DNA of 64,000 bases, taken from the IMG/VR virus record IMGVR_UViG_3300036834_000211, positions 50,542 to 114,541 of that record; one strand, 5' to 3'. This stretch comes from a virus. The notes under the pieces are model-generated. The model was not told the DNA's origin. It saw only the letters and a list, made by a program, of their open reading frames with translations, and ran no database searches. The position numbers and the translations under genes are program-made. Every line of letters begins with the position of its first letter. Positions within the stretch are counted from its first letter, which is position 1. Below are positions 29,243 through 53,720 of this stretch, piece after piece.

Positions 29243-29812
29243 ATGGATTGGGATCGAGTTCGCACCGGCGTAGTCGACATCCTGGTGGGTCTAGGCTGCG
29301 ACTTGAGTGATCCGAACTTCCTTGGCACCCCCGATCGGGTCGTCGAGTCTTACAAGGAGATCTTCGGCGGCCTCGACGAGGTGTCTCAGAAGATTGAGGA
29401 CATCCTGAGCAGTTCGTTCCCGTGTAGTCACGATCAGCTCGTCGTCGCACGAGGTATGGAGGTGTACGGGGTCTGTCCTCATCACCTACTACCGGTTCGG
29501 TACTCGGTCGTCGCGGCCTATCTCCCCGGGTCCGCACCCGGTGGACGCGTTGTTGGGTTGAGTAAGATCTATCGGCTCGTCAAGCTGCTGGCTGGTAGGC
29601 CCGTTCTACAGGAGCAGATGGTCAACGACGTTGCCGAGGCGTTGATGCACATCCCTGGTTGTCAAGGATCGGGGGTCGTCGCCCACGGCGAGCACTTGTG
29701 TGTTCGGATGCGCGGGGTACAGCAGGTCGACAGTGTCGTGACGACGAGCAGCCTGCGCGGTGTCTTCCTCAGTGATGGTGACGTCCGAGCCGAGTTCATG
29801 TCCCTGCGTTAA
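29243..29812 (+). CDS. folE: GTP cyclohydrolase I
   Basis: A 189-residue protein. It converts GTP to 7,8-dihydroneopterin triphosphate, the first step toward 7-deazaguanines. The zinc and active-site motifs are present: YGVCPHHLLPV, then VVGLSKIYRLVKLLAGRPVLQE, GCQGSGVVAHGEHLCVRMRGV and the RG-F ending. Length is normal for the core enzyme without an N-terminal extension. It starts after GGGAGG, behind a large stem-loop. With QueD, QueE and QueC elsewhere in the window it completes the preQ0 pathway. Confidence 0.92.
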   Translation: MDWDRVRTGVVDILVGLGCDLSDPNFLGTPDRVVESYKEIFGGLDEVSQKIEDILSSSFPCSHDQLVVARGMEVYGVCPHHLLPVRYSVVAAYLPGSAPGGRVVGLSKIYRLVKLLAGRPVLQEQMVNDVAEALMHIPGCQGSGVVAHGEHLCVRMRGVQQVDSVVTTSSLRGVFLSDGDVRAEFMSLR

Positions 29813-29825
29813 TGGGGGTTTCCTG

Positions 29826-30020
29826 ATGATAGTGACCTTGATTGTTTTCGTCTGCAGCCTATATTCTGCAGGTGAGTGCAAGAACGTTGAACATTCCGAG
29901 TCGTTCCCAAGTTTTGAGGCGTGTCAGTCCAGGATTGACGAGCTTCAGGAGCAGGACTCTCCGATGCCAGACGTGAAGGTAATTGGTTACACCTGTCGGG
30001 ATGTGACTGATGAAGACTGA
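29826..30020 (+). CDS. Small secreted Cys-containing protein
   Basis: A 64-residue protein; ATG 29826 gives a signal-like start (MIVTLIVFVCSLYSAGEC). The mature part holds three more Cys and is acidic (FPSFEACQSRIDELQEQD). It overlaps the following SDR start by 11 nt. Similar in style to the gene at 1729. Function unknown. Confidence 0.5.
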   Translation: MIVTLIVFVCSLYSAGECKNVEHSESFPSFEACQSRIDELQEQDSPMPDVKVIGYTCRDVTDED

Positions 30021-30696
30021 CGAGCGTTTCGTTGTGACGGGGGCGTCTTCTGGTCTTGGCAGGGAGATCTATCAGTACCTCACCTGTCGATATCAGACTT
30101 CTCAAGTCATTGGGGTGTCCCACCACGGGCCCGACATCGTGACCGACTTGTCCAATCAGATGGGCCTCCTGTCGGTAGTTGCGGAGCTGGTGTCGTGCTC
30201 ACCGCCACATCTGTCGAGACCCATCCGCTGCCTGGTGAACTGCGCTGGTGTGCTGCACCTCGGAGATGGCGACGATGCGAATGCGGATCAGATCTTCAAC
30301 GTTAACTTCTGGGCGCCGTATCACTTGTCGATGAATCTCAGGGAGTGCTTTGTGTCCGGTGAGAGCAGCGTCATAAACGTGGCCTCGGTCTCCGGTATGA
30401 TCGCCGATCCTGACACACCCGTCTATGGATCAAGTAAGGCTGCTCTCATCTCGCTGACTAAGAGCCTGGCGATTAAGTGGGCTCCCCACGTCCGAGTGAA
30501 TTGCATCTCTCCTGGATTCTTCGATACGAATCTAGTCCCCGAGCCCACCCCGCAGCATCTGATCGATCGAGTGCCGCTGGGCTTCGAGGCCTCGACTGGG
30601 ATGATAATCTCTGCGGTCGAGATGCTATTGAGCTGTCCGTACGTGACTGGTTCGAATGTCGTGGTTGATGGAGGACTGTCGTGCAGGGCAGTGTGA
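30010..30696 (+). CDS. Short-chain dehydrogenase/reductase (SDR)
   Basis: A 228-residue classical SDR: cofactor loop TGASSGLG (residues 10-17), structural NCAG (near 77), an active-site Ser in NVASVSGM and the YGSSK catalytic pair (Tyr and Lys near 140-144), ending in VVVDGGLS. It would oxidise or reduce a hydroxyl or keto group with NAD(P)H. It lies between folE and a radical SAM gene in the DpdA cluster, so a sugar or deazapurine side chain is a plausible substrate. SDR is not a standard part of preQ0 synthesis. Confidence 0.85.
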   Translation: MKTDERFVVTGASSGLGREIYQYLTCRYQTSQVIGVSHHGPDIVTDLSNQMGLLSVVAELVSCSPPHLSRPIRCLVNCAGVLHLGDGDDANADQIFNVNFWAPYHLSMNLRECFVSGESSVINVASVSGMIADPDTPVYGSSKAALISLTKSLAIKWAPHVRVNCISPGFFDTNLVPEPTPQHLIDRVPLGFEASTGMIISAVEMLLSCPYVTGSNVVVDGGLSCRAV

Positions 30697-31739
30697 CACC
30701 TCGGTACAGTTGCATCTTCATCTCGCGTGCCTGTCCGCGTGCCTGTTCGTACTGTCTCAGCAAGGACGTCCGCGGTGCAGGATCACTGCTCACACCGAAG
30801 GGGTGGGCCGATGCCTTGCGCATACTCGAGTCCCACGGCATCGTCTTCCACCTGATACTCGGGAACGAGCTGTTCACCTACCCGGATCCGGTGGGATTAG
30901 TCGAGGCGCTGAGGCCGTTCTGGGGCCGCTACGCAATCTACTCGACCTTCCCACCCGGCTATGCGAAGCGGTACCTGGACCCTTGCATCGAGGCGGGTCT
31001 GTACAACATCTCCGGTGGAGTGGACGTCCCGGCGGGTATGAAGACTGGCGATCGTCACGTTGATCGGAAGAGCAGTGAGGTGCTGTACTGGCTCGACTAC
31101 TGTCACACCCACGGTGTGCCAGACGTCCAGGCGACCGTGACGATCCACCGGCACAACTACGATAAGCTGGAGCCACTCCTGGACTACTGCACGGAGCGAG
31201 ACATCTGGGTCGGATGCAGTCTGGTTGAGGCGAGTCCCGATGGGAAGCACGACTTCTACGGTTCGGTCGACTCGATGCGCGACTGGTTGATTCCAGAGAA
31301 CGAGCGCGGCAGGTTTAGGAGTGCGATGTCCCGACTCGCCAGCCAGGTTTCGTCGGGTCGGTGGAAGATGCAGGTTCCACCGTCGTACTTCGAGGAGATG
31401 GGAGAGCGCGAGGTCGATCGAGATCCGTGGCACTGCAGCCTCCCTTTGCTGATCCACGTGGAGGAGGACGGTGTCCTCCGCGCGTGCTCCTACCGGGGTG
31501 GACTGGACGAGCGCTACACCGTGTTCGACCTGCGCGAGGGCGGCTCCTTGTCGATGTCGCGGTATATTGAGATGCAGCAGAGGAAGACGAGACAGTGCCC
31601 GGGCTGCGGGGTCGGCGGGGGAGCGTGGAGCTACTGGTACATGGCAGAAGAATGGCAGAAGGGCCTCGTCGAGCTGGGCGACCAGGTGTTCCAGCGGCAC
31701 GTTCCCGGTTACGAATTTGAGAGGACGAGGCAGAAATGA
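30681..31739 (+). CDS. Radical SAM enzyme with C-terminal SPASM-like cluster
   Basis: A 352-residue protein starting at GTG (GGAGG 6 nt upstream), overlapping the SDR end by 16 nt. Cys18, Cys22 and Cys25 form the CxxxCxxC iron-sulphur motif, followed by a radical SAM barrel. The C-terminus has further Cys (DPWHCSLPLL, RACSYRGG, RQCPGCGVGG) like auxiliary-cluster SPASM enzymes. It is not QueE, which is at 52492 and much shorter. Coupled to queC by ATGA, so it probably acts on a 7-deazaguanine or its substituent. Substrate unknown. Confidence 0.75.
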   Translation: MQGSVTPRYSCIFISRACPRACSYCLSKDVRGAGSLLTPKGWADALRILESHGIVFHLILGNELFTYPDPVGLVEALRPFWGRYAIYSTFPPGYAKRYLDPCIEAGLYNISGGVDVPAGMKTGDRHVDRKSSEVLYWLDYCHTHGVPDVQATVTIHRHNYDKLEPLLDYCTERDIWVGCSLVEASPDGKHDFYGSVDSMRDWLIPENERGRFRSAMSRLASQVSSGRWKMQVPPSYFEEMGEREVDRDPWHCSLPLLIHVEEDGVLRACSYRGGLDERYTVFDLREGGSLSMSRYIEMQQRKTRQCPGCGVGGGAWSYWYMAEEWQKGLVELGDQVFQRHVPGYEFERTRQK

Positions 31740-32470
31740 GTGATCCTATCATCTACGTGTTGCTGAGCGGAGGGATCGACAGTGCCACCGCACTGGGCCT
31801 CGCCGTTGAGAAGGTGGACGAGGTGCGATGCGTTACGATCGACTACGGACAGCGTCACCGCCGCGAGATCGAGGCTGCCGCTGCCCTGGCTGAGATATAC
31901 GACTGCGAGTACGATCTCATCTCGATGCCGATGGGACGGACGATGCTGACCGATCCGACGATTGAGGTGCCCGACGTCGACTATAGCGAGATCATCGGCG
32001 TATCACCCACCTACGTCCCATTTCGCAATGGTCTCATGCTGTCGACGGTGGCTTCTTACATTGCGGGTCGGCATCACGACCTATCTCAAAGGTTTATCGA
32101 CCCTGGTGATGGCGGCATTGGAAAGCCACTCAATCCTGATTACGACCGAGACTGTTTGATCTACTGGGGGGCCCACGCTGAGGATGCAGCCGGCGGGGCG
32201 TATCCGGACTGCACTGCCGAGTTCGTGGGTGCGATGTCGTGCGCGATTGCCATCGCAACGTCGCATAAGGTTAGATTGGTGGCACCCTTCGTCGCGATGT
32301 CGAAGGCCGAGGTTGTCGAGCGAGGGTCCCTACTGGGCGTGTCGTATCGGTGGACGTGGAGTTGCTACAAAGGGGGTGAGAAGCACTGTGGGGTCTGTCC
32401 TACGTGTCGAGCTCGCAAGAGGGCCTTCCTCGATGCGGAGGTTGCGGATCCGACTGAGTACGCCGAGTAG
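31736..32470 (+). CDS. queC: 7-cyano-7-deazaguanine (preQ0) synthase QueC
   Basis: A 244-residue protein. The N-terminal PP-loop LLSGGIDSATAL binds ATP; the family signature DYGQRHRREIEAA follows; the C-terminus YKGGEKHCGVCPTCRARKRAF holds the zinc Cys cluster. It converts 7-carboxy-7-deazaguanine to preQ0 with ammonia. It is ATGA-coupled to the radical SAM gene. Full length, no fusion to an amidotransferase. Confidence 0.92.
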   Translation: MSDPIIYVLLSGGIDSATALGLAVEKVDEVRCVTIDYGQRHRREIEAAAALAEIYDCEYDLISMPMGRTMLTDPTIEVPDVDYSEIIGVSPTYVPFRNGLMLSTVASYIAGRHHDLSQRFIDPGDGGIGKPLNPDYDRDCLIYWGAHAEDAAGGAYPDCTAEFVGAMSCAIAIATSHKVRLVAPFVAMSKAEVVERGSLLGVSYRWTWSCYKGGEKHCGVCPTCRARKRAFLDAEVADPTEYAE

Positions 32471-32475
32471 CCGCC

Positions 32476-32568
32476 TGCGCGTGCCGTCCAGCTTGACAAA
32501 AGTATTTTGGGCTATCGCTATAGCCTCCAGGCTCCTCGCTGGGATGGACGAGCCTTAAAGACGATTTC
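32476..32568 (+). repeat. Intergenic repeat family, copy B
   Basis: It starts 5 nt after the queC stop. The first arm, 32476-32496, is followed by an internal 7-bp hairpin (GGGCTAT and ATAGCCT around CGCT, one G-U), and AGGCTC pairs with GAGCCT further on. GTCCA in the first arm can pair with TGGAC near the end. The final GGACGAGCCTT.AAGACGATTTC block, with one variable position, is shared with copy A. The first 22 nt match the reverse complement of copy E exactly. Confidence 0.6.
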
Positions 32569-32581
32569 CTAGGAGAGCAGT

Positions 32582-32953
32582 ATGACTGAGACTTTTACTC
32601 GTTTGGTGGACAAGCATCATTCTCCATTGATTTTAAGGAAATATACGAAATGGGGCTTTCCTGTTTATGTGTCGATCATTGCCGATAACGATTTGAGTGA
32701 CTTTGATGAAGTGGTAGTTGGGTATGTTGAGGAACATAAGGTTGAGGGGTGGGTTAATGATATTCAGAGATTGCGTAATCTTGCTGGTGAATTAACTGAG
32801 TATTTGTGTCGAAAATATGATAAAACTGAGGGGGTAGGTGTGATGCTCTACGTCGACAAACTGTTTGTGGTCTCTCTATTCGGGGATCATATGAATCATG
32901 GTTCGTGCAAACAAGAATTCTATGATTTAGTAAAGATATCTGCCCATATTTGA
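32582..32953 (+). CDS. Hypothetical protein in a low-GC insert
   Basis: A 123-residue protein with AGGAG upstream of its ATG. Alternating strands and helices (WGFPVYVSIIADNDLSDFDE, then LRNLAGELTEYLCRKY) suggest a compact alpha-beta fold. No family recognised. Base and codon use are clearly AT rich, like the HNH gene behind it and unlike the flanking queC. The pair probably entered together. Confidence 0.6.
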   Translation: MTETFTRLVDKHHSPLILRKYTKWGFPVYVSIIADNDLSDFDEVVVGYVEEHKVEGWVNDIQRLRNLAGELTEYLCRKYDKTEGVGVMLYVDKLFVVSLFGDHMNHGSCKQEFYDLVKISAHI

Positions 32954-32963
32954 GGTCACCAGG

Positions 32964-33623
32964 ATGAGAAAAGGGTACAAGCAGACATTAGCACATCGAA
33001 TTTCTCGATTGGCTTGGTTGAAAGATAGTGAGAAACTTAGACAAGCGATTGAGAAGTCGTCGACATCGCAGCGAGGTATTCGACGCCCTTGTATATCCGG
33101 AAGCAGACATCCAAATTATGGTAATATTGGTCATTTGTCTGATCGCAAGTGGGTGACTAATGGGATTGAGAATAAACGGATTTATATTAATGAAGAGATT
33201 CCATTGGGTTGGCGGTCTGGGATGTTATTAAAGAAGAAGAGTAGTAAAGTACACCGTTGTTTAGTTGGTTCATTTACGAATATTGAATGGGAGGGATTAA
33301 AGCGATACTACGATTTTAGATGTCATTGCTGTCGAAAACAAGAACCGGAGGTTAAACTTGAGAAGGATCATATAGTTCCGGTCAGTCTCGGGGGATTGAA
33401 TATTATTGAGAACATTCAGCCTCTTTGTGTTCGATGTAATCGGATTAAGAAAGCCCGTATTATTGCTTATAGAGTTAATAGGTTTCATAGTCTAGTTCGT
33501 ATGCGAGAACGACTAGAGTCTATTCTAAGGAAAAGAGCTGCGTTAGGTTTGCTTGATATTGAGTTTACTAGAATGCTGGCCTTCGAATTGGGGGTGCAGC
33601 TTCCGACGTCGATTGGTATTTGA
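32964..33623 (+). CDS. HNH homing endonuclease
   Basis: A 219-residue protein with GAGG and AGG before its ATG. The HNH core lies in residues about 108-155: FRCHCCRKQE, LEKDHIVPVSLGG, ENIQPLCVRCNRIKKAR, with two Cys pairs for structural zinc and the DH catalytic pair. The N-terminal half is basic and probably binds DNA. Strong AT bias marks it as a recent mobile gene inserted between queC and the deacetylase gene. Its stop overlaps the next start (TGATG). Confidence 0.85.
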   Translation: MRKGYKQTLAHRISRLAWLKDSEKLRQAIEKSSTSQRGIRRPCISGSRHPNYGNIGHLSDRKWVTNGIENKRIYINEEIPLGWRSGMLLKKKSSKVHRCLVGSFTNIEWEGLKRYYDFRCHCCRKQEPEVKLEKDHIVPVSLGGLNIIENIQPLCVRCNRIKKARIIAYRVNRFHSLVRMRERLESILRKRAALGLLDIEFTRMLAFELGVQLPTSIGI

Positions 33624-34108
33624 TGTCTTCCATCTCCATCTGGGCACCCCACCCCGACGATGAGATAATCGGATGCTGGTCCGCCCTGCATCTAAAGCAC
33701 CGAGTTGATGACATATCGGTGATCTACTTGTCGGGTGTTGGTGATCCCGGTATAGAGAGATCACAGGCGAGGTTTGGTTTTCGATATCTGTACGCAGGAT
33801 ACGCGAATATGGAGGCGGCTGGGCCATATAGTACCGTCTTGGCACCCGATCCTGCGTCGGATTGGCACCCGCTGCATCAGCGGGTCGGTCAGGTGGCCCA
33901 GCATATGTTCCGCGACGGTAAGATCAGGCGTTTGATCATGTACACGACGAGGATGTTGGCTCCGTACGTATTCGAGGTGGCGAACCCAGCGGCGAAGCGA
34001 GCGGCGTTGAACGATTGCTATCCCGAGAAGAGCAGCCTTTGGGAGTCCGATCACAGGTTCTTCCTGTTCGAGGGCTACTGCTCCTGGTTGCGCCCCGGTG
34101 AAATATGA
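33623..34108 (+). CDS. PIG-L family deacetylase
   Basis: A 161-residue protein; ATG 33623 gives MSSISIWAPHPDDEIIGC, containing the zinc-binding and catalytic HPDDE motif of GlcNAc deacetylases (PIG-L, MshB, BshB). A second His occurs in PASDWHPLHQRV, as expected for the third zinc ligand. It is short for the family (usually about 220) but has both motifs. Next to a glycosyltransferase and DpdA, it could deacetylate an amino sugar attached to a modified base. Confidence 0.8.
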   Translation: MSSISIWAPHPDDEIIGCWSALHLKHRVDDISVIYLSGVGDPGIERSQARFGFRYLYAGYANMEAAGPYSTVLAPDPASDWHPLHQRVGQVAQHMFRDGKIRRLIMYTTRMLAPYVFEVANPAAKRAALNDCYPEKSSLWESDHRFFLFEGYCSWLRPGEI

Positions 34109-34145
34109 TTACGTAAGAAACGGCCAATGATCAGGAGAACATAAA

Positions 34146-35081
34146 ATGGGAAGACTAATAGTCGTACCTCAGTATCCCGCCAGACTTAGGTATCAAGAGT
34201 GGTATCCGCAGCGGATGCGAGAGTATGCCAATCACTTTGACGAGGTCATCTTCCTCAAGCCCGACACTGAAGCCCTGCTTCCACCATTGGGTGGATTCTC
34301 TCCCGTCGACTTGGCATTAGACTACGAGCTCTGTCAGATCAGGACGTACCTCGATCTGACACTCGAAGATGAAAACGTGCTGTTGCTGTGCGACCTCAGC
34401 TTCCCCGGGCTGTTCGCCTCCGTCCTGTACCACAAGCGCCCCAGTCGTTGCTTTACCATCTGCCACGGGACGTCGAGGAACAAGCACGACTACTTTGCCG
34501 ACTGTCGATCCAGTAAGTGGAGCGTCGAGGGCGGGCACAGTGAGCTGTTCGAAGGGGTATTCGTCGCGACTGAGTACCACCGCCGGAAGTTGGGTTGGTC
34601 CAACTGCCACGTCGTCTCCTTCCCACTCCCTCGAATTAGCGAACTGGGGGATCTTCACCCTTCCATCGTACGTGCGTACCGACCGAGTCGTATCGTCAGC
34701 GTTGCCCGACCCGGCCTGCAGAAGGTGAATCTGGAGGTCGAGCAGGAGATCGAGGAGATGACGGGCAGTCGGATCGTCAGGTTCCACGAGACGGGTGGAC
34801 GGACTTGGTCCGACTATTACTCGTTCCTGCGGGACGCTGACTTCCTGCTGGTCTCGTCGAGGGAGGAGACCTACGGCTACCAGGTAATTGACGCGCTATC
34901 GGTGGGTACGGTTCCCATTGCCCCCCGCGCGTTGTCGTACCCCGAGTTGCTGCCAGCTCGCTGTCTGTACGAACCCGGCAGTGCAGTGGATGCGGTCGCT
35001 GTGATGGAGCGGTATCCCACTTGTCCGGCCTTGTGGGAAGATACATTCATCAGGGACACTGCTCGTATAATGCAAGCATGA
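34146..35081 (+). CDS. Glycosyltransferase, GT-B fold
   Basis: A 311-residue protein with AGGAG upstream. The C-terminal domain carries DADFLLVSSREETYGYQVID, then ALSVGTVPIAPRALSYPELLP, the donor-binding pattern of GT1/GT4-type enzymes (Glu near 245). The N-terminal domain reads as a Rossmann-like acceptor domain. ATGA-coupled to dpdA and preceded by a PIG-L deacetylase, the order seen in GlcNAc transferase plus deacetylase pairs. It probably transfers a sugar to the deazaguanine or to DNA carrying it. Confidence 0.75.
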   Translation: MGRLIVVPQYPARLRYQEWYPQRMREYANHFDEVIFLKPDTEALLPPLGGFSPVDLALDYELCQIRTYLDLTLEDENVLLLCDLSFPGLFASVLYHKRPSRCFTICHGTSRNKHDYFADCRSSKWSVEGGHSELFEGVFVATEYHRRKLGWSNCHVVSFPLPRISELGDLHPSIVRAYRPSRIVSVARPGLQKVNLEVEQEIEEMTGSRIVRFHETGGRTWSDYYSFLRDADFLLVSSREETYGYQVIDALSVGTVPIAPRALSYPELLPARCLYEPGSAVDAVAVMERYPTCPALWEDTFIRDTARIMQA

Positions 35082-36409
35082 CGAAGAGATTCATCTTCAT
35101 GCTCGACAGTGGTGCCTACTCGGTGTGGGCTCGATCCAATTCGAACCCGCATCGATTGGAACTGCGTCGTCGAGTGCTCGAGGCGTTGAAGGTCCACGGG
35201 AGCAAGAAGAGAGCGGCTGAAGAATTGGGTATCCCTCTAGGTCTGGTCCAGACCGTATCCAGTGACGAGGTCGAGCGCAGAGTGACGCTTGAGAACTATG
35301 CCGAATTCGTGAGTGGACACAGACACCTGTTCCGCGGTGGTGTGTGGAATTTTGACGTCATCGGGTCCGACAAGGGCAGTTATGAGAACTGGCTCGAGTT
35401 GCGGCGTCTCGGTGTGGACACCATCCCCGTGCACCACGTCGGCGATGACGTATCGTACTTGACGAAGTATCTCGACGAGTGCGAATTCGTCGGGATTGGT
35501 GCCATTGCCAAGATGGATACGAACAGTAGGATACACGGTCTCGATGACGTGTGGAAGTCTCACTTGTTGACGGGCGACGGATCCCCCCGCTGTCGAGTCC
35601 ACGGACTCGGCTTGACTGACACTTCGATCGTCTTGAGGTACCCTTGGTACTCCGTCGACAGTACGAAGACCATTGCTGCGGCTGCGTACGGTTCGGTCCT
35701 GATCCCAAACTTGAGTAGATCCGAGATCTCATACGACGACCTCATCCCCGTCTCGATAAGTAATCAGTCGAGGAGGGTCGAGTTGCCGAAGGGCAGGTCA
35801 TCGTCGAGTTCAAATTTCTACTTCCTTCCCCAGCGTACTCAAGAGGTACTGTACAAACTGACTGCGGATCTTGGATTTGGGATTAGTCGGACTCTAGAGG
35901 GTCGGGTCCTGCGATCGAAGATGACTTCTCGTAAGAGGCAAGATTCGGTATGGGTCAATGGATTGGGTATCGAAGCTGCTGTCGAAGTGCAGGAATCTGA
36001 GGTTTCGAACAACTTGTCGTCGAGTTGGCGGGCTAGGTATGCTTTTAATCTGCTGATGGTTGATCGGTTTGTCGAGCATTGGCGTCAACTCGGTCGAGCA
36101 ATTCGGATCTACAACGTGGCGGGCGGATCTCACGTGCTCGACGTCTTTACTTCTGTGTCGGACAGTCACCCGGCAAACAGGTCACTCGTCAGTTTCGCTA
36201 AGATGTCCGACAACCTGGTAACCAGATTGGAATGTGCGATCAATGGAGATACAGAGAGAAGTACTATTGTCGGCAATCAAGCTCGTACTGCCGGCGATGG
36301 CTCAGAAGGAACTCTTCGACCAGTCAAACAAGATCGCGTTCGCCGGCGGGAAGGTGGTGGCGTTCAACGACGCCGTCGCAATACTGCATCCCCTTCCTGG
36401 CGGCCTTGA
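35078..36409 (+). CDS. dpdA: DpdA, DNA 7-deazaguanine transglycosylase, with HTH insertion
   Basis: A 443-residue protein; ATG 35078 overlaps the glycosyltransferase stop. It belongs to the phage TGT-like family that swaps guanine in DNA for a 7-deazaguanine. Motifs: MLDSGAYSVW (residues 8-17, Asp for base recognition), VWNFDVIG, FVGIGAIAKM, and RVHGLGLTD followed by RYPWYSVDST with the presumed nucleophile Asp. Residues about 22-68 are an extra helix-turn-helix-like insert (KKRAAEELGIPLGLVQTV). The last 55 residues overlap dnaN out of frame and look non-native. Confidence 0.85.
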   Translation: MTKRFIFMLDSGAYSVWARSNSNPHRLELRRRVLEALKVHGSKKRAAEELGIPLGLVQTVSSDEVERRVTLENYAEFVSGHRHLFRGGVWNFDVIGSDKGSYENWLELRRLGVDTIPVHHVGDDVSYLTKYLDECEFVGIGAIAKMDTNSRIHGLDDVWKSHLLTGDGSPRCRVHGLGLTDTSIVLRYPWYSVDSTKTIAAAAYGSVLIPNLSRSEISYDDLIPVSISNQSRRVELPKGRSSSSSNFYFLPQRTQEVLYKLTADLGFGISRTLEGRVLRSKMTSRKRQDSVWVNGLGIEAAVEVQESEVSNNLSSSWRARYAFNLLMVDRFVEHWRQLGRAIRIYNVAGGSHVLDVFTSVSDSHPANRSLVSFAKMSDNLVTRLECAINGDTERSTIVGNQARTAGDGSEGTLRPVKQDRVRRREGGGVQRRRRNTASPSWRP

Positions 36410-37271
36410 CCTCGAGGGGGCAGTTGATGGTCAGCATCTGTATCGTCTCCTCAACAAGCTGTCTGCCGAAGTTGTCAATCTGACTGTTGACAACGACAAG
36501 ATCCACCTGCGCGCCGGTCGGAGTACGGCATCGTTCAACATACTGCCAGTGACACTACCCATCGACTCGGTCGACATGACGGGGCAGATGGTCGAGTTAC
36601 CCAAGACCTTCGTCGATCAATTGAAATGGGTCAGTTCGAGTTGTGCCCGCGACATGAGCCGACCTGCACTGACCTGCGTCCTGGTCGAGGGTGGATGGAT
36701 GCAGGCCAGCGATTCGTACCGAATCAGTCGAGTCCACCACGGTGACAGCACCACCGGTGCTTGGGACCTCCCTCGATTGATGCTTCCAATTACGCAGATC
36801 GAAGTGCTGGTGGACTATCCGGTCAAGCGCGTGGCACTGTCAGACGGAGGTGAATGGGCTCGATTTGAGACCGAGTCTGGGACCACGTTGTGCGCCAGGT
36901 CGCGGTCCGGTGAATTTCCGAACTTGGCGTCGATGTACGACGTTGAGGGGCATGAGATCCAGTTGACCACCGCACTGGCTCAGGTGATCGAGCGGGCTCA
37001 GATCTTCTCTCGGCGCGAACACTCGATCGACGAGGAGATTCGGATCTCCATGAGGCCCAACCAGATTACGATATCGGCGCAGTACGATGGTGGCAAGTTC
37101 TCCGAGGTGGCTAGATGCGAGGGAGCGGTCGACGGGATCGAGTTCGTGATCCACCCAAAATTCTTATCCGCCGCCCTCGAGTCCGGGACACGATGCGTAT
37201 TGGGTGAGAATAGAGTGAAGTTCAGTGGGACGGATTGGGACCACGTCGTCGCGTTGAAGGTAATGAAATGA
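36243..37271 (+). CDS. dnaN: DNA polymerase sliding clamp (DnaN-like)
   Basis: A 342-residue protein, close to cellular beta-clamp length. ATG 36243 is preferred over GTG 36234. The three-domain pattern is visible: N-terminal LLSAIKLVLPAM, central VDMTGQMVELPKTFVDQLK and TDSYR-type ASDSYRISRVH, C-terminal FVIHPKFLSAALES and VKFSGTDWDHVVALKVMK. It tethers the polymerase to DNA and is loaded by the ATPase at 40676. It overlaps the dpdA 3' end by 167 nt. Confidence 0.85.
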   Translation: MEIQREVLLSAIKLVLPAMAQKELFDQSNKIAFAGGKVVAFNDAVAILHPLPGGLDLEGAVDGQHLYRLLNKLSAEVVNLTVDNDKIHLRAGRSTASFNILPVTLPIDSVDMTGQMVELPKTFVDQLKWVSSSCARDMSRPALTCVLVEGGWMQASDSYRISRVHHGDSTTGAWDLPRLMLPITQIEVLVDYPVKRVALSDGGEWARFETESGTTLCARSRSGEFPNLASMYDVEGHEIQLTTALAQVIERAQIFSRREHSIDEEIRISMRPNQITISAQYDGGKFSEVARCEGAVDGIEFVIHPKFLSAALESGTRCVLGENRVKFSGTDWDHVVALKVMK

Positions 37272-51061: not shown

Positions 51062-51496
51062 ATGATTGTCGTGACCGCCAGTCGTTTCCACGATTTTTCT
51101 TATGGACATCGGGTATTTGGGCACGAGAACAAGTGTGCTCACCCCCACGGCCACAATGCCAGGGCCCACTTCAGCTGCTCTGCTCCAGAGCAGGACAGCA
51201 TCGGTCGAATCATTGACTTTGGTGTGATGAAGAGCCTCCTGTGCCAGTGGCTCGAGGACAACTGGGACCACAAGTTCTTGATTTGGGTGAGTGATCCCTC
51301 GTCCTGGGATCTGATCAAGTTGTATCCCGGAGGGGTGGTGAGCGTCCCTTTCAATCCCACCGCTGAGAACATGGCTCGGCACCTGTTGGAAGTCGTTGGT
51401 CCGCGGTGCCTGGTCGGTACGGGTGTCGAGTTGATTGAGGTCGAGGTCGAAGAGACTAGGAAGTGCAGTGCATCTGCCAGGATAGAGAAGGAGTAG
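51062..51496 (+). CDS. queD: 6-carboxy-tetrahydropterin synthase QueD
   Basis: A 144-residue protein. It converts dihydroneopterin triphosphate to 6-carboxy-tetrahydropterin. Motifs: FSYGHRVFG (first zinc His), CAHPHGHNARAHF (catalytic Cys, then two zinc His), IIDFGVMKSLL, NWDHKFLI, and PTAENMARHLLE. Length is slightly above the usual 120 residues. It lies 15 kb from queC and dpdA but close to queE. Confidence 0.9.
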   Translation: MIVVTASRFHDFSYGHRVFGHENKCAHPHGHNARAHFSCSAPEQDSIGRIIDFGVMKSLLCQWLEDNWDHKFLIWVSDPSSWDLIKLYPGGVVSVPFNPTAENMARHLLEVVGPRCLVGTGVELIEVEVEETRKCSASARIEKE

Positions 51497-51500
51497 ATTG

Positions 51501-52478
51501 ATGAGCCATCGTACGTCTGCCAAGGTCGTCCTCGACTCGATCACCCCTCACGGTTCCGAGACGCGCCTGATGTCGATGTATGTCATCTTCCCCAAGATGA
51601 TCATTGGGGAACGCAACCGACATCGGGCGTTTAGCCTCTCCGATCGCTCCTCGCGCGCCGTACCACCCGAGAAGCTGATCGACGAGGTAGTTCTCGATCC
51701 GGCGATGCCGGCGAAGTTTCGCCGCCGATCTAAGGGGATGGGTGGTGGGGAGGAGTTGGTCGGTGACGAACTGGTCGAGGCTCAGGAGCGCTGGAGGAGG
51801 GCTGCCTTCACGGCGGCGGGATGGGCGGGCATTGCGGCGAAGGCTGGTGAGGCCAAGGAGACTGCGAACCGACCGATAGATCCGTACATTCGAATGCACT
51901 CGCTGATGACTGCGACTCGCGACTGCTGGCTGAACTTCTTCGGCCTGCGCCTCGACGAGGGAGCCGACCCGACGATCCAGGTACTGGCTCAGCGGTGCTT
52001 CGAGGTGTACAAAGACTCGACGCCAAAACTCCTGGAGCCGGGCGAGTGGCACCTGCCGTTCGTGGATGACGATGAGGTGTTTCAGAACTCGATGGGACCG
52101 GATGTCTGGACTATCGACGATAGACCTGGGAAGGGGCTGACCGTGATCGAGGTCGCGAAGCGTCTATCCGCCGCACGCTGCGCCCATCTGTCTTACAACG
52201 ATCTGGAGACCGGTAAGCGGATGACGGTCGATCGTGCTCTCTTGATCTACGATAAGCTGGTCACATCTCGTCCGCTTCACGCTAGTCCGTGCGAGCACCA
52301 GGCCACACCGGACGAATGGCGATCTTATGCTATGAAGCGCGAAGAGGTTGATGCGGGAACGCAGTATGGTGAGTGGGTACATCGGTCGGAGCACGGTAAT
52401 CTCCTCGGCTGGCGCCAGGCTCGCAAGATGTTGCCTGGCGAGGCCGTCGCCCCGCTCCCGGAGGGGTATGAATTGTGA
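51501..52478 (+). CDS. thyX: Flavin-dependent thymidylate synthase ThyX
   Basis: A 325-residue protein; ATG 51501 has GGAG upstream. The ThyX signature is present as ERNRHRAFSLSDRSSRAVP (RHR-x7-S-type motif binding FAD and dUMP). The C-terminal half contains AARCAHLSYNDLETGK and PLHASPCEHQATPD, matching phage ThyX proteins that carry extra C-terminal sequence. It makes dTMP from dUMP supplied by the Dcd-like enzyme at 25227. Confidence 0.85.
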   Translation: MSHRTSAKVVLDSITPHGSETRLMSMYVIFPKMIIGERNRHRAFSLSDRSSRAVPPEKLIDEVVLDPAMPAKFRRRSKGMGGGEELVGDELVEAQERWRRAAFTAAGWAGIAAKAGEAKETANRPIDPYIRMHSLMTATRDCWLNFFGLRLDEGADPTIQVLAQRCFEVYKDSTPKLLEPGEWHLPFVDDDEVFQNSMGPDVWTIDDRPGKGLTVIEVAKRLSAARCAHLSYNDLETGKRMTVDRALLIYDKLVTSRPLHASPCEHQATPDEWRSYAMKREEVDAGTQYGEWVHRSEHGNLLGWRQARKMLPGEAVAPLPEGYEL

Positions 52479-52491
52479 TGGAGGAGATTCG

Positions 52492-53313
52492 ATGTTTGGT
52501 CTAAATCAAATTACTACGGCTAAGGATTTTGTGGGTCAGACTCCCTACACGTTGAAGGTTACTTCGATCTTCTATACATTGCAGGGTGAGGGCCCCTTTT
52601 CGGGACATCCTTGCGTATTCGTGCGCTTGTCCCACTGTCACCTCCAGTGCAAGTTCTGCGACACGTGGTTCGACAGTGGTGATGTGATGTCCTTCCCTGG
52701 TATCGTCGGAGCGGCTCGAGGATCCGTGCGACGATTTAATGAGATGCACGGTGGGTCAATTGACGAACTACCGGACTTGTTCGTCATTACGGGCGGTGAA
52801 CCGCTGCTCCAGCCCAATCTAGTGCGGTTTATTGATTACTTATCATTGAGTGGTATCCGAGTGCAGATTGAGACGACTGGGACGATCGATGTTGATGTCC
52901 CGCGCGATGTGGGTGCGTACGTGGTGTGCAGTCCGAAGCTCAATGCTCGTGGATTGCCGTTGCACATCTCACTGTCGATGCTCGAACGTGTTGACTGCAT
53001 GAAGTGCGTCGTGTCCAAGACTGATCTACTTTACAATGACATCCCATTCTTGGTACTGTATTGGCGAGATCAGCATCCCGATCGGCCAGTCTACGTGTCA
53101 CCAATGAACACCTACCTCAAGCCACCAGTCAAGCTGGGGGTTGATGGGTCGCTCGAGGGTCGAAGTGAGACGGACGAGCGCATTTCATTCTGGACGCCCG
53201 GACTGCTTGATCTTGAGGCAAATCGGGTGAACCACGAGTACGCAGCCGAATTGGCACTGCGCCATCGAGTGCGACTGACCCTGCAGACGCACCTGTACGC
53301 GAGTCTGCCGTGA
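52492..53313 (+). CDS. queE: 7-carboxy-7-deazaguanine synthase QueE
   Basis: A 273-residue protein; ATG 52492 has GGAGG upstream. Radical SAM motif CHLQCKFCDTWF (CxxxCxxC) lies near residue 45, preceded by FYTLQGEGPFSGHPCVFVRL, the QueE-specific substrate and SAM region, and followed by ITGGEPLLQPNL and IETTGTID. It converts 6-carboxy-tetrahydropterin to 7-carboxy-7-deazaguanine, the QueC substrate. Longer than minimal QueE (about 220). Confidence 0.92.
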   Translation: MFGLNQITTAKDFVGQTPYTLKVTSIFYTLQGEGPFSGHPCVFVRLSHCHLQCKFCDTWFDSGDVMSFPGIVGAARGSVRRFNEMHGGSIDELPDLFVITGGEPLLQPNLVRFIDYLSLSGIRVQIETTGTIDVDVPRDVGAYVVCSPKLNARGLPLHISLSMLERVDCMKCVVSKTDLLYNDIPFLVLYWRDQHPDRPVYVSPMNTYLKPPVKLGVDGSLEGRSETDERISFWTPGLLDLEANRVNHEYAAELALRHRVRLTLQTHLYASLP

Positions 53314-53720
53314 ACCGGATCGTATTGACTTGGGAGCAGATCGACGATGCGTGTGGTAGATTGGCGCGCCTGCTGAGGAATCCGAAGCCATCGGCCATCG
53401 TCGCGGTCCTGCGTGGGGGACTGGTGCCGGCTACGATACTGTCGTATGCCCTCGGTGCCCCGATCGTCGACGTCGTCGATCCCAGGCGATCCTCGACCTA
53501 TCGTCCCGGTCGCGACCTTCTCGTTGTTGATGACGTGTGCGATACGGGTGCTACACTCGAGCATCTGCGTTCGTACTTCCCCAATGCGCGATTTGCAGCG
53601 TTGTACACAAAGCCAATTGGCGAGGCTTTGTGCAGTTTTGTCGTCCATCCCTTCATCATCCCCGTGCCTCAGGATACGTGGATCACGTTCCCGTGGAGCC
53701 CGAATGACCATCTCGAGTGA
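53310..53720 (+). CDS. Phosphoribosyltransferase
   Basis: A 136-residue type I PRTase starting at GTG overlapping the queE stop. The PRPP-binding loop is LLVVDDVCDTGATLEHL, and an upstream AVLRGGLVPATILS supplies the PPi loop. Closest in pattern to small purine or xanthine-guanine PRTases. Coupling to queE makes a 7-deazaguanine or purine base a plausible substrate, for instance to make a deazaguanine nucleotide, but this is inference. Confidence 0.75.
   Translation: MNRIVLTWEQIDDACGRLARLLRNPKPSAIVAVLRGGLVPATILSYALGAPIVDVVDPRRSSTYRPGRDLLVVDDVCDTGATLEHLRSYFPNARFAALYTKPIGEALCSFVVHPFIIPVPQDTWITFPWSPNDHLE

What the first reader, a model, noticed from the sequence alone, without database searches (positions are those of the whole stretch)
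29243..36409. A deazaguanine DNA-modification cluster with glycosyltransferase, PIG-L deacetylase, SDR and radical SAM: candidate new DNA hypermodification
Seen: FolE, SDR, radical SAM/SPASM, QueC, PIG-L deacetylase, GT-B glycosyltransferase and DpdA lie in one run, mostly coupled by stop/start overlaps, and QueD, QueE and a PRTase lie at 51-53.7 kb. Known: FolE, QueD, QueE and QueC make preQ0, and phage DpdA inserts 7-deazaguanines into DNA. Glycosyltransferase plus PIG-L deacetylase pairs attach GlcNAc and then deacetylate it in GPI-anchor, mycothiol and bacillithiol synthesis. Inference: this phage decorates DNA with a glycosylated, possibly amino-sugar-bearing 7-deazaguanine. I know of no described 7-deazaguanine DNA modification carrying a sugar. 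No QueF is visible in the window.
Basis: partly seen in the sequence, partly recalled or inferred. Interest (0 to 1): 0.95.

Follow-up and report, generated by a model that had tools for sequence, protein, structure and literature searches.

The report
Phage cluster for sugar-bearing deazaguanine DNA
This virus, like dozens of unrelated ones, keeps genes that make the unusual DNA letter 7-deazaguanine next to a pair of sugar enzymes (a glycosyltransferase and a sugar deacetylase), which suggests that it coats its DNA with an amino sugar, a kind of DNA decoration that I found described nowhere and that can be tested in phages already in culture.

Summary
The cluster is real and complete: FolE, SDR, radical SAM, canonical QueC, PIG-L, glycosyltransferase (GT) and DpdA at 29.2-36.4 kb, with QueD, QueE and a PRTase at 51-53.7 kb. 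GT plus PIG-L is no accident of this contig. Of 64 viral contigs holding the GT (50 clusters at 90% identity), 57 have PIG-L and 61 a deazaguanine gene nearby. 41 of 46 whole records tested have a DpdA-type transglycosylase, from four sequence types. The GT is nearly absent from 84,980 cellular genomes. Its predicted fold is closest to BshA, the GlcNAc transferase whose natural partner is a PIG-L deacetylase; catalytic residues of both are conserved. No hydroxymethylpyrimidine maker and no QueF were found. Best reading: DNA 7-deazaguanine carrying a (probably deacetylated) amino sugar; the chemistry is inferred. Radical SAM-SDR is a separable module: 16 related records carry the radical SAM (most with SDR and DpdA) but no GT or PIG-L, so it need not act on the sugar. 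Xanthomonas phage X1 carries the GT/PIG-L/transglycosylase set; the PA5oct/Paride group carries GT plus transglycosylase-like gene without PIG-L. Both make it testable now.

The parts
29243..29812 (+). FolE, GTP cyclohydrolase I: first step from GTP
   Evidence: PF01227 E=1.3e-45; conserved in relatives
30010..30696 (+). SDR oxidoreductase; always with the radical SAM in relatives, separable from the sugar genes
   Evidence: PF00106 E=5e-26; 13 of 13 SDR contigs also hold the radical SAM; also in GT-free relatives
30681..31739 (+). radical SAM enzyme with a C-terminal auxiliary-cluster-like domain (C252-x11-G-x4-C269 ... C306-x2-C309), role unknown
   Evidence: PF04055 E=1.2e-9; invariant CPRxCxxC and four further Cys in alignment A4
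31736..32470 (+). QueC, with the canonical motifs SGGxDS, YxQxHxxE, VPxRN, YPDC and zinc cysteines
   Evidence: PF06508 E=1.7e-50; motifs read, signature from PMC13329287
32582..32953 (+). orf123: new small T-fold protein, FolE-like without FolE zinc/catalytic residues; conserved next to PIG-L and GT
   Evidence: no Pfam/PDB sequence match; AF2 model pLDDT 88, best PDB fold GTP cyclohydrolase I, prob 1.00, TM 0.63, E=2.4e-3; profile-profile match to FolE E=3.6e-5
32964..33623 (+). HNH endonuclease inserted between orf123 and PIG-L; probably not part of the pathway
   Evidence: PF14279 E=1.5e-13; no HNH found at this place in relatives
33623..34108 (+). PIG-L-type deacetylase: predicted to remove N-acetyl from the transferred sugar
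   Evidence: PF02585 E=1e-4; H10, D12, D13, H85 in 42 of 42 and H82 in 41 of 42 homologues; nearest solved relatives diacetylchitobiose deacetylases, weak
34146..35081 (+). GT-B/GT4-type glycosyltransferase: predicted UDP-GlcNAc-type transferase
   Evidence: AF2 model pLDDT 91; best PDB fold BshA, E=2e-8, TM 0.61; R188, K193 and E-x7-D/E motif conserved
35078..36409 (+). DpdA, DNA guanine transglycosylase; core ends about 36230; a 46-residue insert carries an HTH_8-like stretch
   Evidence: phrog_887 E=2.2e-32; invariant D10 and D194; HTH_8 E=0.0095
51062..51496 (+). QueD, 6-carboxytetrahydropterin synthase
   Evidence: TIGR03367 E=1.1e-16
52468..53313 (+). QueE, 7-carboxy-7-deazaguanine synthase (start uncertain; open frame from 52348)
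   Evidence: TIGR04322 E=9.4e-22
53310..53720 (+). phosphoribosyltransferase; possible salvage of the guanine that DpdA releases
   Evidence: PF00156 E=6.4e-14; PRTase domain fused to FolE in L013

Best explanation
The cluster makes a 7-deazaguanine base and places it, decorated with a hexosamine, in the phage's own DNA. FolE, QueD and QueE make 7-carboxy-7-deazaguanine (CDG) and QueC takes it to the amide/nitrile (7-amido-7-deazaguanine, preQ0): established chemistry of these families. DpdA exchanges guanine in DNA for the deazaguanine: established for the family. The BshA-like GT transfers a sugar, most likely GlcNAc, to the deazaguanine (free base or already in DNA), and the PIG-L enzyme removes the acetyl group, leaving a cationic amino sugar: inferred. 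The likely purpose is protection from restriction and CRISPR nucleases: inferred. orf123, a FolE-like fold without FolE's catalytic residues, probably binds the deazaguanine or assists its tailoring: inferred. The SDR-radical SAM pair is an additional, separable tailoring step of unknown chemistry.
For: 64 viral contigs with the GT: 57 with PIG-L, 61 with a deazaguanine gene in the fetched stretch; 51 GT sequences, 50 clusters at 90% identity. DpdA-type transglycosylase in 41 of 46 whole records (26 by phrog_887, then 8, 4 and 3 by three further types), against 171 of 50,697 sequenced phages matched by a single DpdA query (a lower bound). GT and DpdA overlap or abut in 17 of 26 loci and overlap by 4 bases in the window. 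GT family found in 1 of 84,980 cellular genomes, on a contig with the same virus-like cluster. GT fold nearest to BshA; catalytic residues of GT and PIG-L conserved. No PF00303 hydroxymethylase in the 114.5-kb record or in the 200-kb X1 genome. Isolated phage X1 has FolE, PP-loop ATPase, PIG-L, GT, transglycosylase, QueD and QueE in one run.
Against: No chemical data exist. preQ0 has no hydroxyl or amine side chain for an ordinary GT, and no QueF was found to make preQ1; the acceptor is therefore unclear. Donor specificity cannot be read from a fold match at 12% identity. Some related GTs lack PIG-L. Phage DLP3 carries PIG-L and a BshA-annotated GT with WcaG/WecE and no annotated deazaguanine gene in the 46 kb viewed, so such pairs can serve other acceptors. 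Five of 46 records show no transglycosylase (all may be fragments).
Confidence: 0.7

Rival explanations
1. GT and PIG-L modify a host surface glycan or virion protein and merely sit beside the deazaguanine genes as morons.
For: Phage GTs and PIG-L proteins have been read this way, e.g. in DLP3 with WcaG and WecE nearby.
Against: The association holds across about 50 GT lineages and four transglycosylase types; GT overlaps or abuts DpdA in 17 of 26 loci; no nucleotide-sugar gene was identified in the cluster. DLP3 DNA itself resisted 15 restriction enzymes (PMC7326821).
Confidence: 0.1
2. The GT-PIG-L pair glycosylates a pterin or other small molecule made by FolE/QueD-like enzymes and SDR (as in tetrahydrobiopterin glucoside), not DNA.
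For: FolE, SDR and a QueD-family gene are present; a tetrahydrobiopterin glucosyltransferase (PsBGluT) is among the fold matches.
Against: QueE, QueC and DpdA commit the pathway to deazaguanine in DNA; the SDR pairs with the radical SAM, not with FolE or GT (13 of 13), and occurs without GT.
Confidence: 0.05
3. PIG-L is not a sugar deacetylase but an amidohydrolase acting on an acylated deazaguanine side chain; GT adds a plain hexose.
For: Acylated deazaguanines (formyl-dPreQ1) are reported in phages (Cui 2023, from memory; paper not held); GT-only relatives exist.
Against: PIG-L and GT are near-obligate partners in the main set (57 of 64) and the GT folds like BshA, whose pathway uses a PIG-L deacetylase on the GlcNAc product.
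Confidence: 0.1
4. Radical SAM and SDR deoxygenate or epimerise the added amino sugar, as in aminoglycoside pathways (AprD4/AprD3-like). This is an add-on to the best explanation, not an alternative to it.
For: SDR always accompanies the radical SAM; the Cys pattern resembles twitch/SPASM enzymes; GT, PIG-L, radical SAM and SDR together match aminoglycoside logic (family knowledge).
Against: The radical SAM occurs in 16 records without GT or PIG-L, most with SDR, FolE/QueC genes and DpdA; several GT/PIG-L contigs show no SDR in the fetched stretch.
Confidence: 0.1

Closest known systems
Phage 7-deazaguanine DNA modification (DpdA systems, e.g. phage 9g, Queuovirinae)
   Same: FolE, QueD, QueE, QueC and a DpdA transglycosylase with the conserved aspartates
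   Different: Adds GT, PIG-L, orf123, radical SAM and SDR; the known derivatives that I could check or recall (preQ0, amido, archaeosine, carboxy, preQ1 and its methyl/formyl forms, plain deaza) carry no sugar
Bacillithiol and mycothiol GT-deacetylase pairs (BshA/BshB, MshA/MshB)
   Same: GT4-type fold nearest to BshA, MshA also among the matches, paired with a PIG-L protein with intact catalytic residues
   Different: Acceptor is presumably not malate or inositol; genes sit with DpdA; sequence identity about 12%
T4-type glucosylation of hydroxymethylcytosine DNA
   Same: Phage glycosyltransferase presumed to decorate phage DNA
   Different: No PF00303 hydroxymethylase in the record; modified base is presumably a deazapurine; T4 GTs not among the best fold matches listed
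QueC-family deazaguanylating ligases Cap9 and QatC
   Same: An N-type ATP pyrophosphatase activating CDG may be used for conjugation rather than preQ0 synthesis
   Different: The window QueC is canonical; most GT-set relatives have a shortened QueC without zinc cysteines, unlike Cap9

Membership tests
DpdA-type 7-deazaguanine DNA modification | CDG/preQ0 synthesis genes FolE, QueD, QueE, QueC | tested here: met
   QueC motifs
DpdA-type 7-deazaguanine DNA modification | Transglycosylase of the DpdA/TGT family with catalytic aspartates | tested here: met
   phrog_887 E=2e-32; D10 and D194 invariant
DpdA-type 7-deazaguanine DNA modification | Deazaguanine present in virion DNA | not testable with these tools
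   needs LC-MS/MS
BshA/MshA-like GT with PIG-L partner | GT4-like GT-B fold with R-x4-K and E-x7-E/D | tested here: met
BshA/MshA-like GT with PIG-L partner | PIG-L catalytic residues (PHPDDE and HPxH) | tested here: met
BshA/MshA-like GT with PIG-L partner | UDP-GlcNAc donor and N-acetyl product | not testable with these tools
   needs enzyme assay
Hydroxymethylpyrimidine DNA glucosylation (T4 type) | Phage hydroxymethylase of the thymidylate-synthase family | tested here: not met
   PF00303 absent from the 114.5-kb record (record may be incomplete) and from X1
preQ1 branch | QueF nitrile reductase | tested here: not met
   PF14489 absent; orf123 is FolE-like
dG+ (archaeosine) branch | Glutamine amidotransferase domain fused to QueC | tested here: not met
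   Window QueC is 244 aa without GATase; GATase-QueC-like fusions seen in the GT-free group
AprD4/AprD3-type sugar deoxygenation | Radical SAM-SDR pair tied to the amino-sugar genes | tested here: not met
   Occurs without GT or PIG-L in 16 records

The most novel reading that the evidence does not exclude
The system joins thiol-cofactor logic to DNA modification: the GT makes a GlcNAc-bearing intermediate, PIG-L frees its amine, and an N-type ATP pyrophosphatase (shortened zinc-less QueC in most relatives, a PAPS-reductase-like ATPase overlapping PIG-L in the X1 group, which shows no Pfam QueC above cut-off) adenylates CDG and couples its carboxylate to that amine, as MshC couples cysteine in mycothiol synthesis and as Cap9/QatC are proposed to do with proteins. 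DpdA then inserts an amide-linked amino sugar-deazaguanine conjugate into DNA.
Probability: 0.15. Interest if true: 0.95.

Novelty: new variant of a known kind. Interest (0 to 1): 0.82.

Why it matters
It would be, as far as I could find, the first sugar-bearing 7-deazaguanine in DNA, widening purine-side DNA hypermodification to glycans, until now described for pyrimidines. It is widespread but overlooked, appears with four transglycosylase types, and occurs in cultured phages, including Xanthomonas phage X1 and (as GT without PIG-L) the PA5oct/Paride group of P. aeruginosa PAO1, so one mass-spectrometry experiment can settle it. A positively charged amino sugar in the major groove would be a strong candidate for broad restriction and CRISPR resistance and a handle for DNA chemistry.

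Tried and rejected
AprD4/AprD3-like aminosugar deoxygenation for SDR and radical SAM: attractive until the same module turned up without GT or PIG-L. orf123 as a hidden QueF: rejected, since its best fold and profile match is FolE, it has no Pfam QueF match, and QueF is absent from the record. Frameshift in DpdA: rejected, since the frame agrees with relative L002 to the natural end and only the stop is missing. hmC/hmU glycosylation: PF00303 absent. Direct viral-contig search with DpdA found nothing confirmed; the PIG-L alignment A1 was too variable to scan. tblastn of window GT and radical SAM against 50,697 phage records found nothing; the X1 GT found 16. Searching orf123 against viral structures gave no reliable match. 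Literature: Cui 2023 is not held.
Full report
WHAT IS THERE. The window is bases 50542-114541 of a 114,541-base IMG/VR record. On the + strand lie FolE (29243-29812), SDR (30010-30696), a radical SAM enzyme (30681-31739), QueC (31736-32470), orf123 (32582-32953), an HNH endonuclease (32964-33623), PIG-L (33623-34108), GT (34146-35081), DpdA (35078-36409) and then a DNA polymerase sliding clamp (36243-37271). QueD (51062-51496), a ThyX-like gene, QueE (about 52468-53313) and a PRTase (53310-53720) follow at 51-53.7 kb. Four of the eight junctions from FolE to DpdA overlap. The DpdA frame matches relative L002 up to its natural end and then runs on into the clamp gene.

CONSERVATION. The GT found 13 related viral contigs directly and 56 loci by alignment; orf123 found 33 loci. 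Profiles of each family were run over all fetched stretches. 64 contigs carry the GT: 57 have PIG-L, 61 at least one deazaguanine gene, 34 orf123, 30 FolE, 36 QueE; of the three without a deazaguanine gene two are contigs under 6 kb. The 51 GT sequences form 50 clusters at 90% identity, so these are not copies of one virus. Window-like contigs share the order FolE-(SDR)-radical SAM-(methyltransferase)-QueC-orf123-PIG-L-GT-DpdA-clamp. In 46 whole records a DpdA-type transglycosylase was found in 41: 26 with phrog_887 and 15 with three further sequence types. Two of these types match phrog_887 only weakly; the X1 type matches a PHROG of unknown function and is annotated as queuine tRNA-ribosyltransferase in X1. 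A single DpdA query matches 171 of 50,697 sequenced phages; this is a lower bound for the base rate. In 84,980 cellular genomes the GT pattern search found one confirmed relative, on a metagenome-assembled contig that carries the same complete cluster.

THE SUGAR PAIR. The GT has no Pfam match and only a weak PHROG glycosyltransferase match, but its AlphaFold2 model is confident (pLDDT 91), and the best solved folds are BshA with GlcNAc-malate and UMP, then sucrose-phosphate synthase, PglA and others including MshA. Catalytic features of GT4 enzymes (R188, K193, E241-x7-D/E) are conserved across 41 homologues, and PIG-L's H10, D12, D13, H82 and H85 across 42 with one exception at H82. BshA makes GlcNAc-malate, which a PIG-L protein deacetylates in bacillithiol synthesis (established). 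The same division of labour is the most economical reading here. Donor and acceptor are inferred.

ORF123. It has no match in Pfam or by sequence in the PDB. Its model (pLDDT 88) is a beta-beta-alpha-alpha-beta-beta-alpha T-fold, closest to GTP cyclohydrolase I (probability 1.00, TM 0.63, E 2.4e-3), and its profile aligns to the FolE set with E 3.6e-5, HHalign probability 71%. It lacks FolE's zinc and catalytic residues. I read it as a FolE-derived protein recruited for binding or tailoring a deazaguanine.

WHAT THE RADICAL SAM AND SDR DO NOT SHOW. They were the attractive part of an aminoglycoside analogy. A search with the radical SAM found 33 loci. 16 records contain it, most with SDR, FolE, QueD, QueC-family genes and DpdA, but neither GT nor PIG-L anywhere in the record, while the positive control G003 was found. 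Many of these carry a QueC-like protein with an amidotransferase-like N-terminus, the type linked with archaeosine-like bases. So GT-PIG-L and radical SAM-SDR are two separable modules on one chassis; the window has both.

QUEC VARIANTS. The window QueC has the canonical motifs as defined in PMC13329287. About 20 of 24 distinct QueC proteins of the GT set stop before the zinc motif. In the X1 group a PAPS-reductase-like ATPase overlaps PIG-L, and no Pfam QueC above cut-off is found in the X1 genome or five large relatives. This is the basis of the novel case (CDG coupled to an amine freed by PIG-L). It is a hypothesis only; host QueC could also supply preQ0.

CULTURED RELATIVES. Xanthomonas phage X1 carries FolE, PAPS-reductase-like ATPase, PIG-L, a small protein, GT, transglycosylase, QueD and QueE in one run. 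The PA5oct/MIJ3/Paride group of P. aeruginosa, Acidovorax phage ACP17, Synechococcus phage BUCT-ZZ01 and Sinorhizobium phage Phosso carry a distant GT (24-27% identity) among QueD-, QueE- and mostly transglycosylase-like genes; the PIG-L profile does not match them. In PA5oct the gene before GT has no family match, and I call it transglycosylase-like only from its DSGGFQ motif. I found no report of their DNA nucleosides.

LIMITS. No chemical data exist. Viral records are fragments. Contigs were found through GT or orf123, so the 41 of 46 figure describes GT-bearing viruses, not all DpdA viruses. The literature search covers open-licence papers only; the list of known derivatives partly rests on my memory of Cui et al. 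2023, which was not held.

VERDICT. Observation confirmed; interpretation partly supported and strengthened by wide conservation; the sugar on deazaguanine is the best explanation at about 0.7.

Noticed in passing
window 35159-35297 (DpdA residues 28-73): 46-residue insert absent from related DpdA proteins, with a weak Fis-type helix-turn-helix match (HTH_8, E=0.0095); might give sequence specificity.
   Followed up: partly
window 36230-36409: DpdA frame lacks its natural stop and overlaps the sliding-clamp gene by about 166 bases; mutation or sequencing error.
   Followed up: partly
window 53310-53720; L013:10911-11864: PRTase beside QueE; a PRTase domain is fused to FolE in L013 (and by eye in L011, L131, L133). 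May recycle the guanine released by DpdA into GTP for FolE.
   Followed up: partly
L131-L135, L141-L146, L149, L152, L153, L155: Deazaguanine clusters with radical SAM, mostly with SDR and GATase-QueC plus a second QueC-like gene, no GT or PIG-L; some show no QueE within 10 kb. Possibly another undescribed deazaguanine derivative.
   Followed up: partly
L002:6498-7175 and the same place in L008, L010, L021, L023, L045: SAM methyltransferase between radical SAM and QueC in six contigs, not seen in the window.
   Followed up: no
L144:6389-8008: QueE open frame of 539 aa interrupted by an intein-like stretch.
   Followed up: no
L119 (Pseudomonas phage PA5oct) 6373-9056: Transglycosylase-like gene overlapping a GT, followed by a QueD paralogue, PRTase and QueE; no PIG-L. 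The group includes phage Paride.
   Followed up: partly
L123 (Xanthomonas phage PhiXhv-12) 345-9602: GATase-QueC, PIG-L and GT in a row beside acyltransferase-like genes; no DpdA seen in the stretch. Function unclear.
   Followed up: partly
L017:12668-13099 and 12 related loci: Small protein (about 143 aa, no family match) between PIG-L and GT in the X1 group.
   Followed up: no
L015:10492-11258: Cytidylyltransferase-like and MazG-like genes between PIG-L and GT in a 244-kb phage record.
   Followed up: no
L158 (Stenotrophomonas phage DLP3) 20671-26096: PIG-L, WcaG, WecE, methyltransferase and a BshA-annotated GT in a phage whose DNA resisted 15 restriction enzymes; no deazaguanine gene annotated in the 46 kb viewed.
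   Followed up: partly
window 29760-30020: Small open frame (86 aa, signal-peptide-like start) between FolE and SDR.
   Followed up: no
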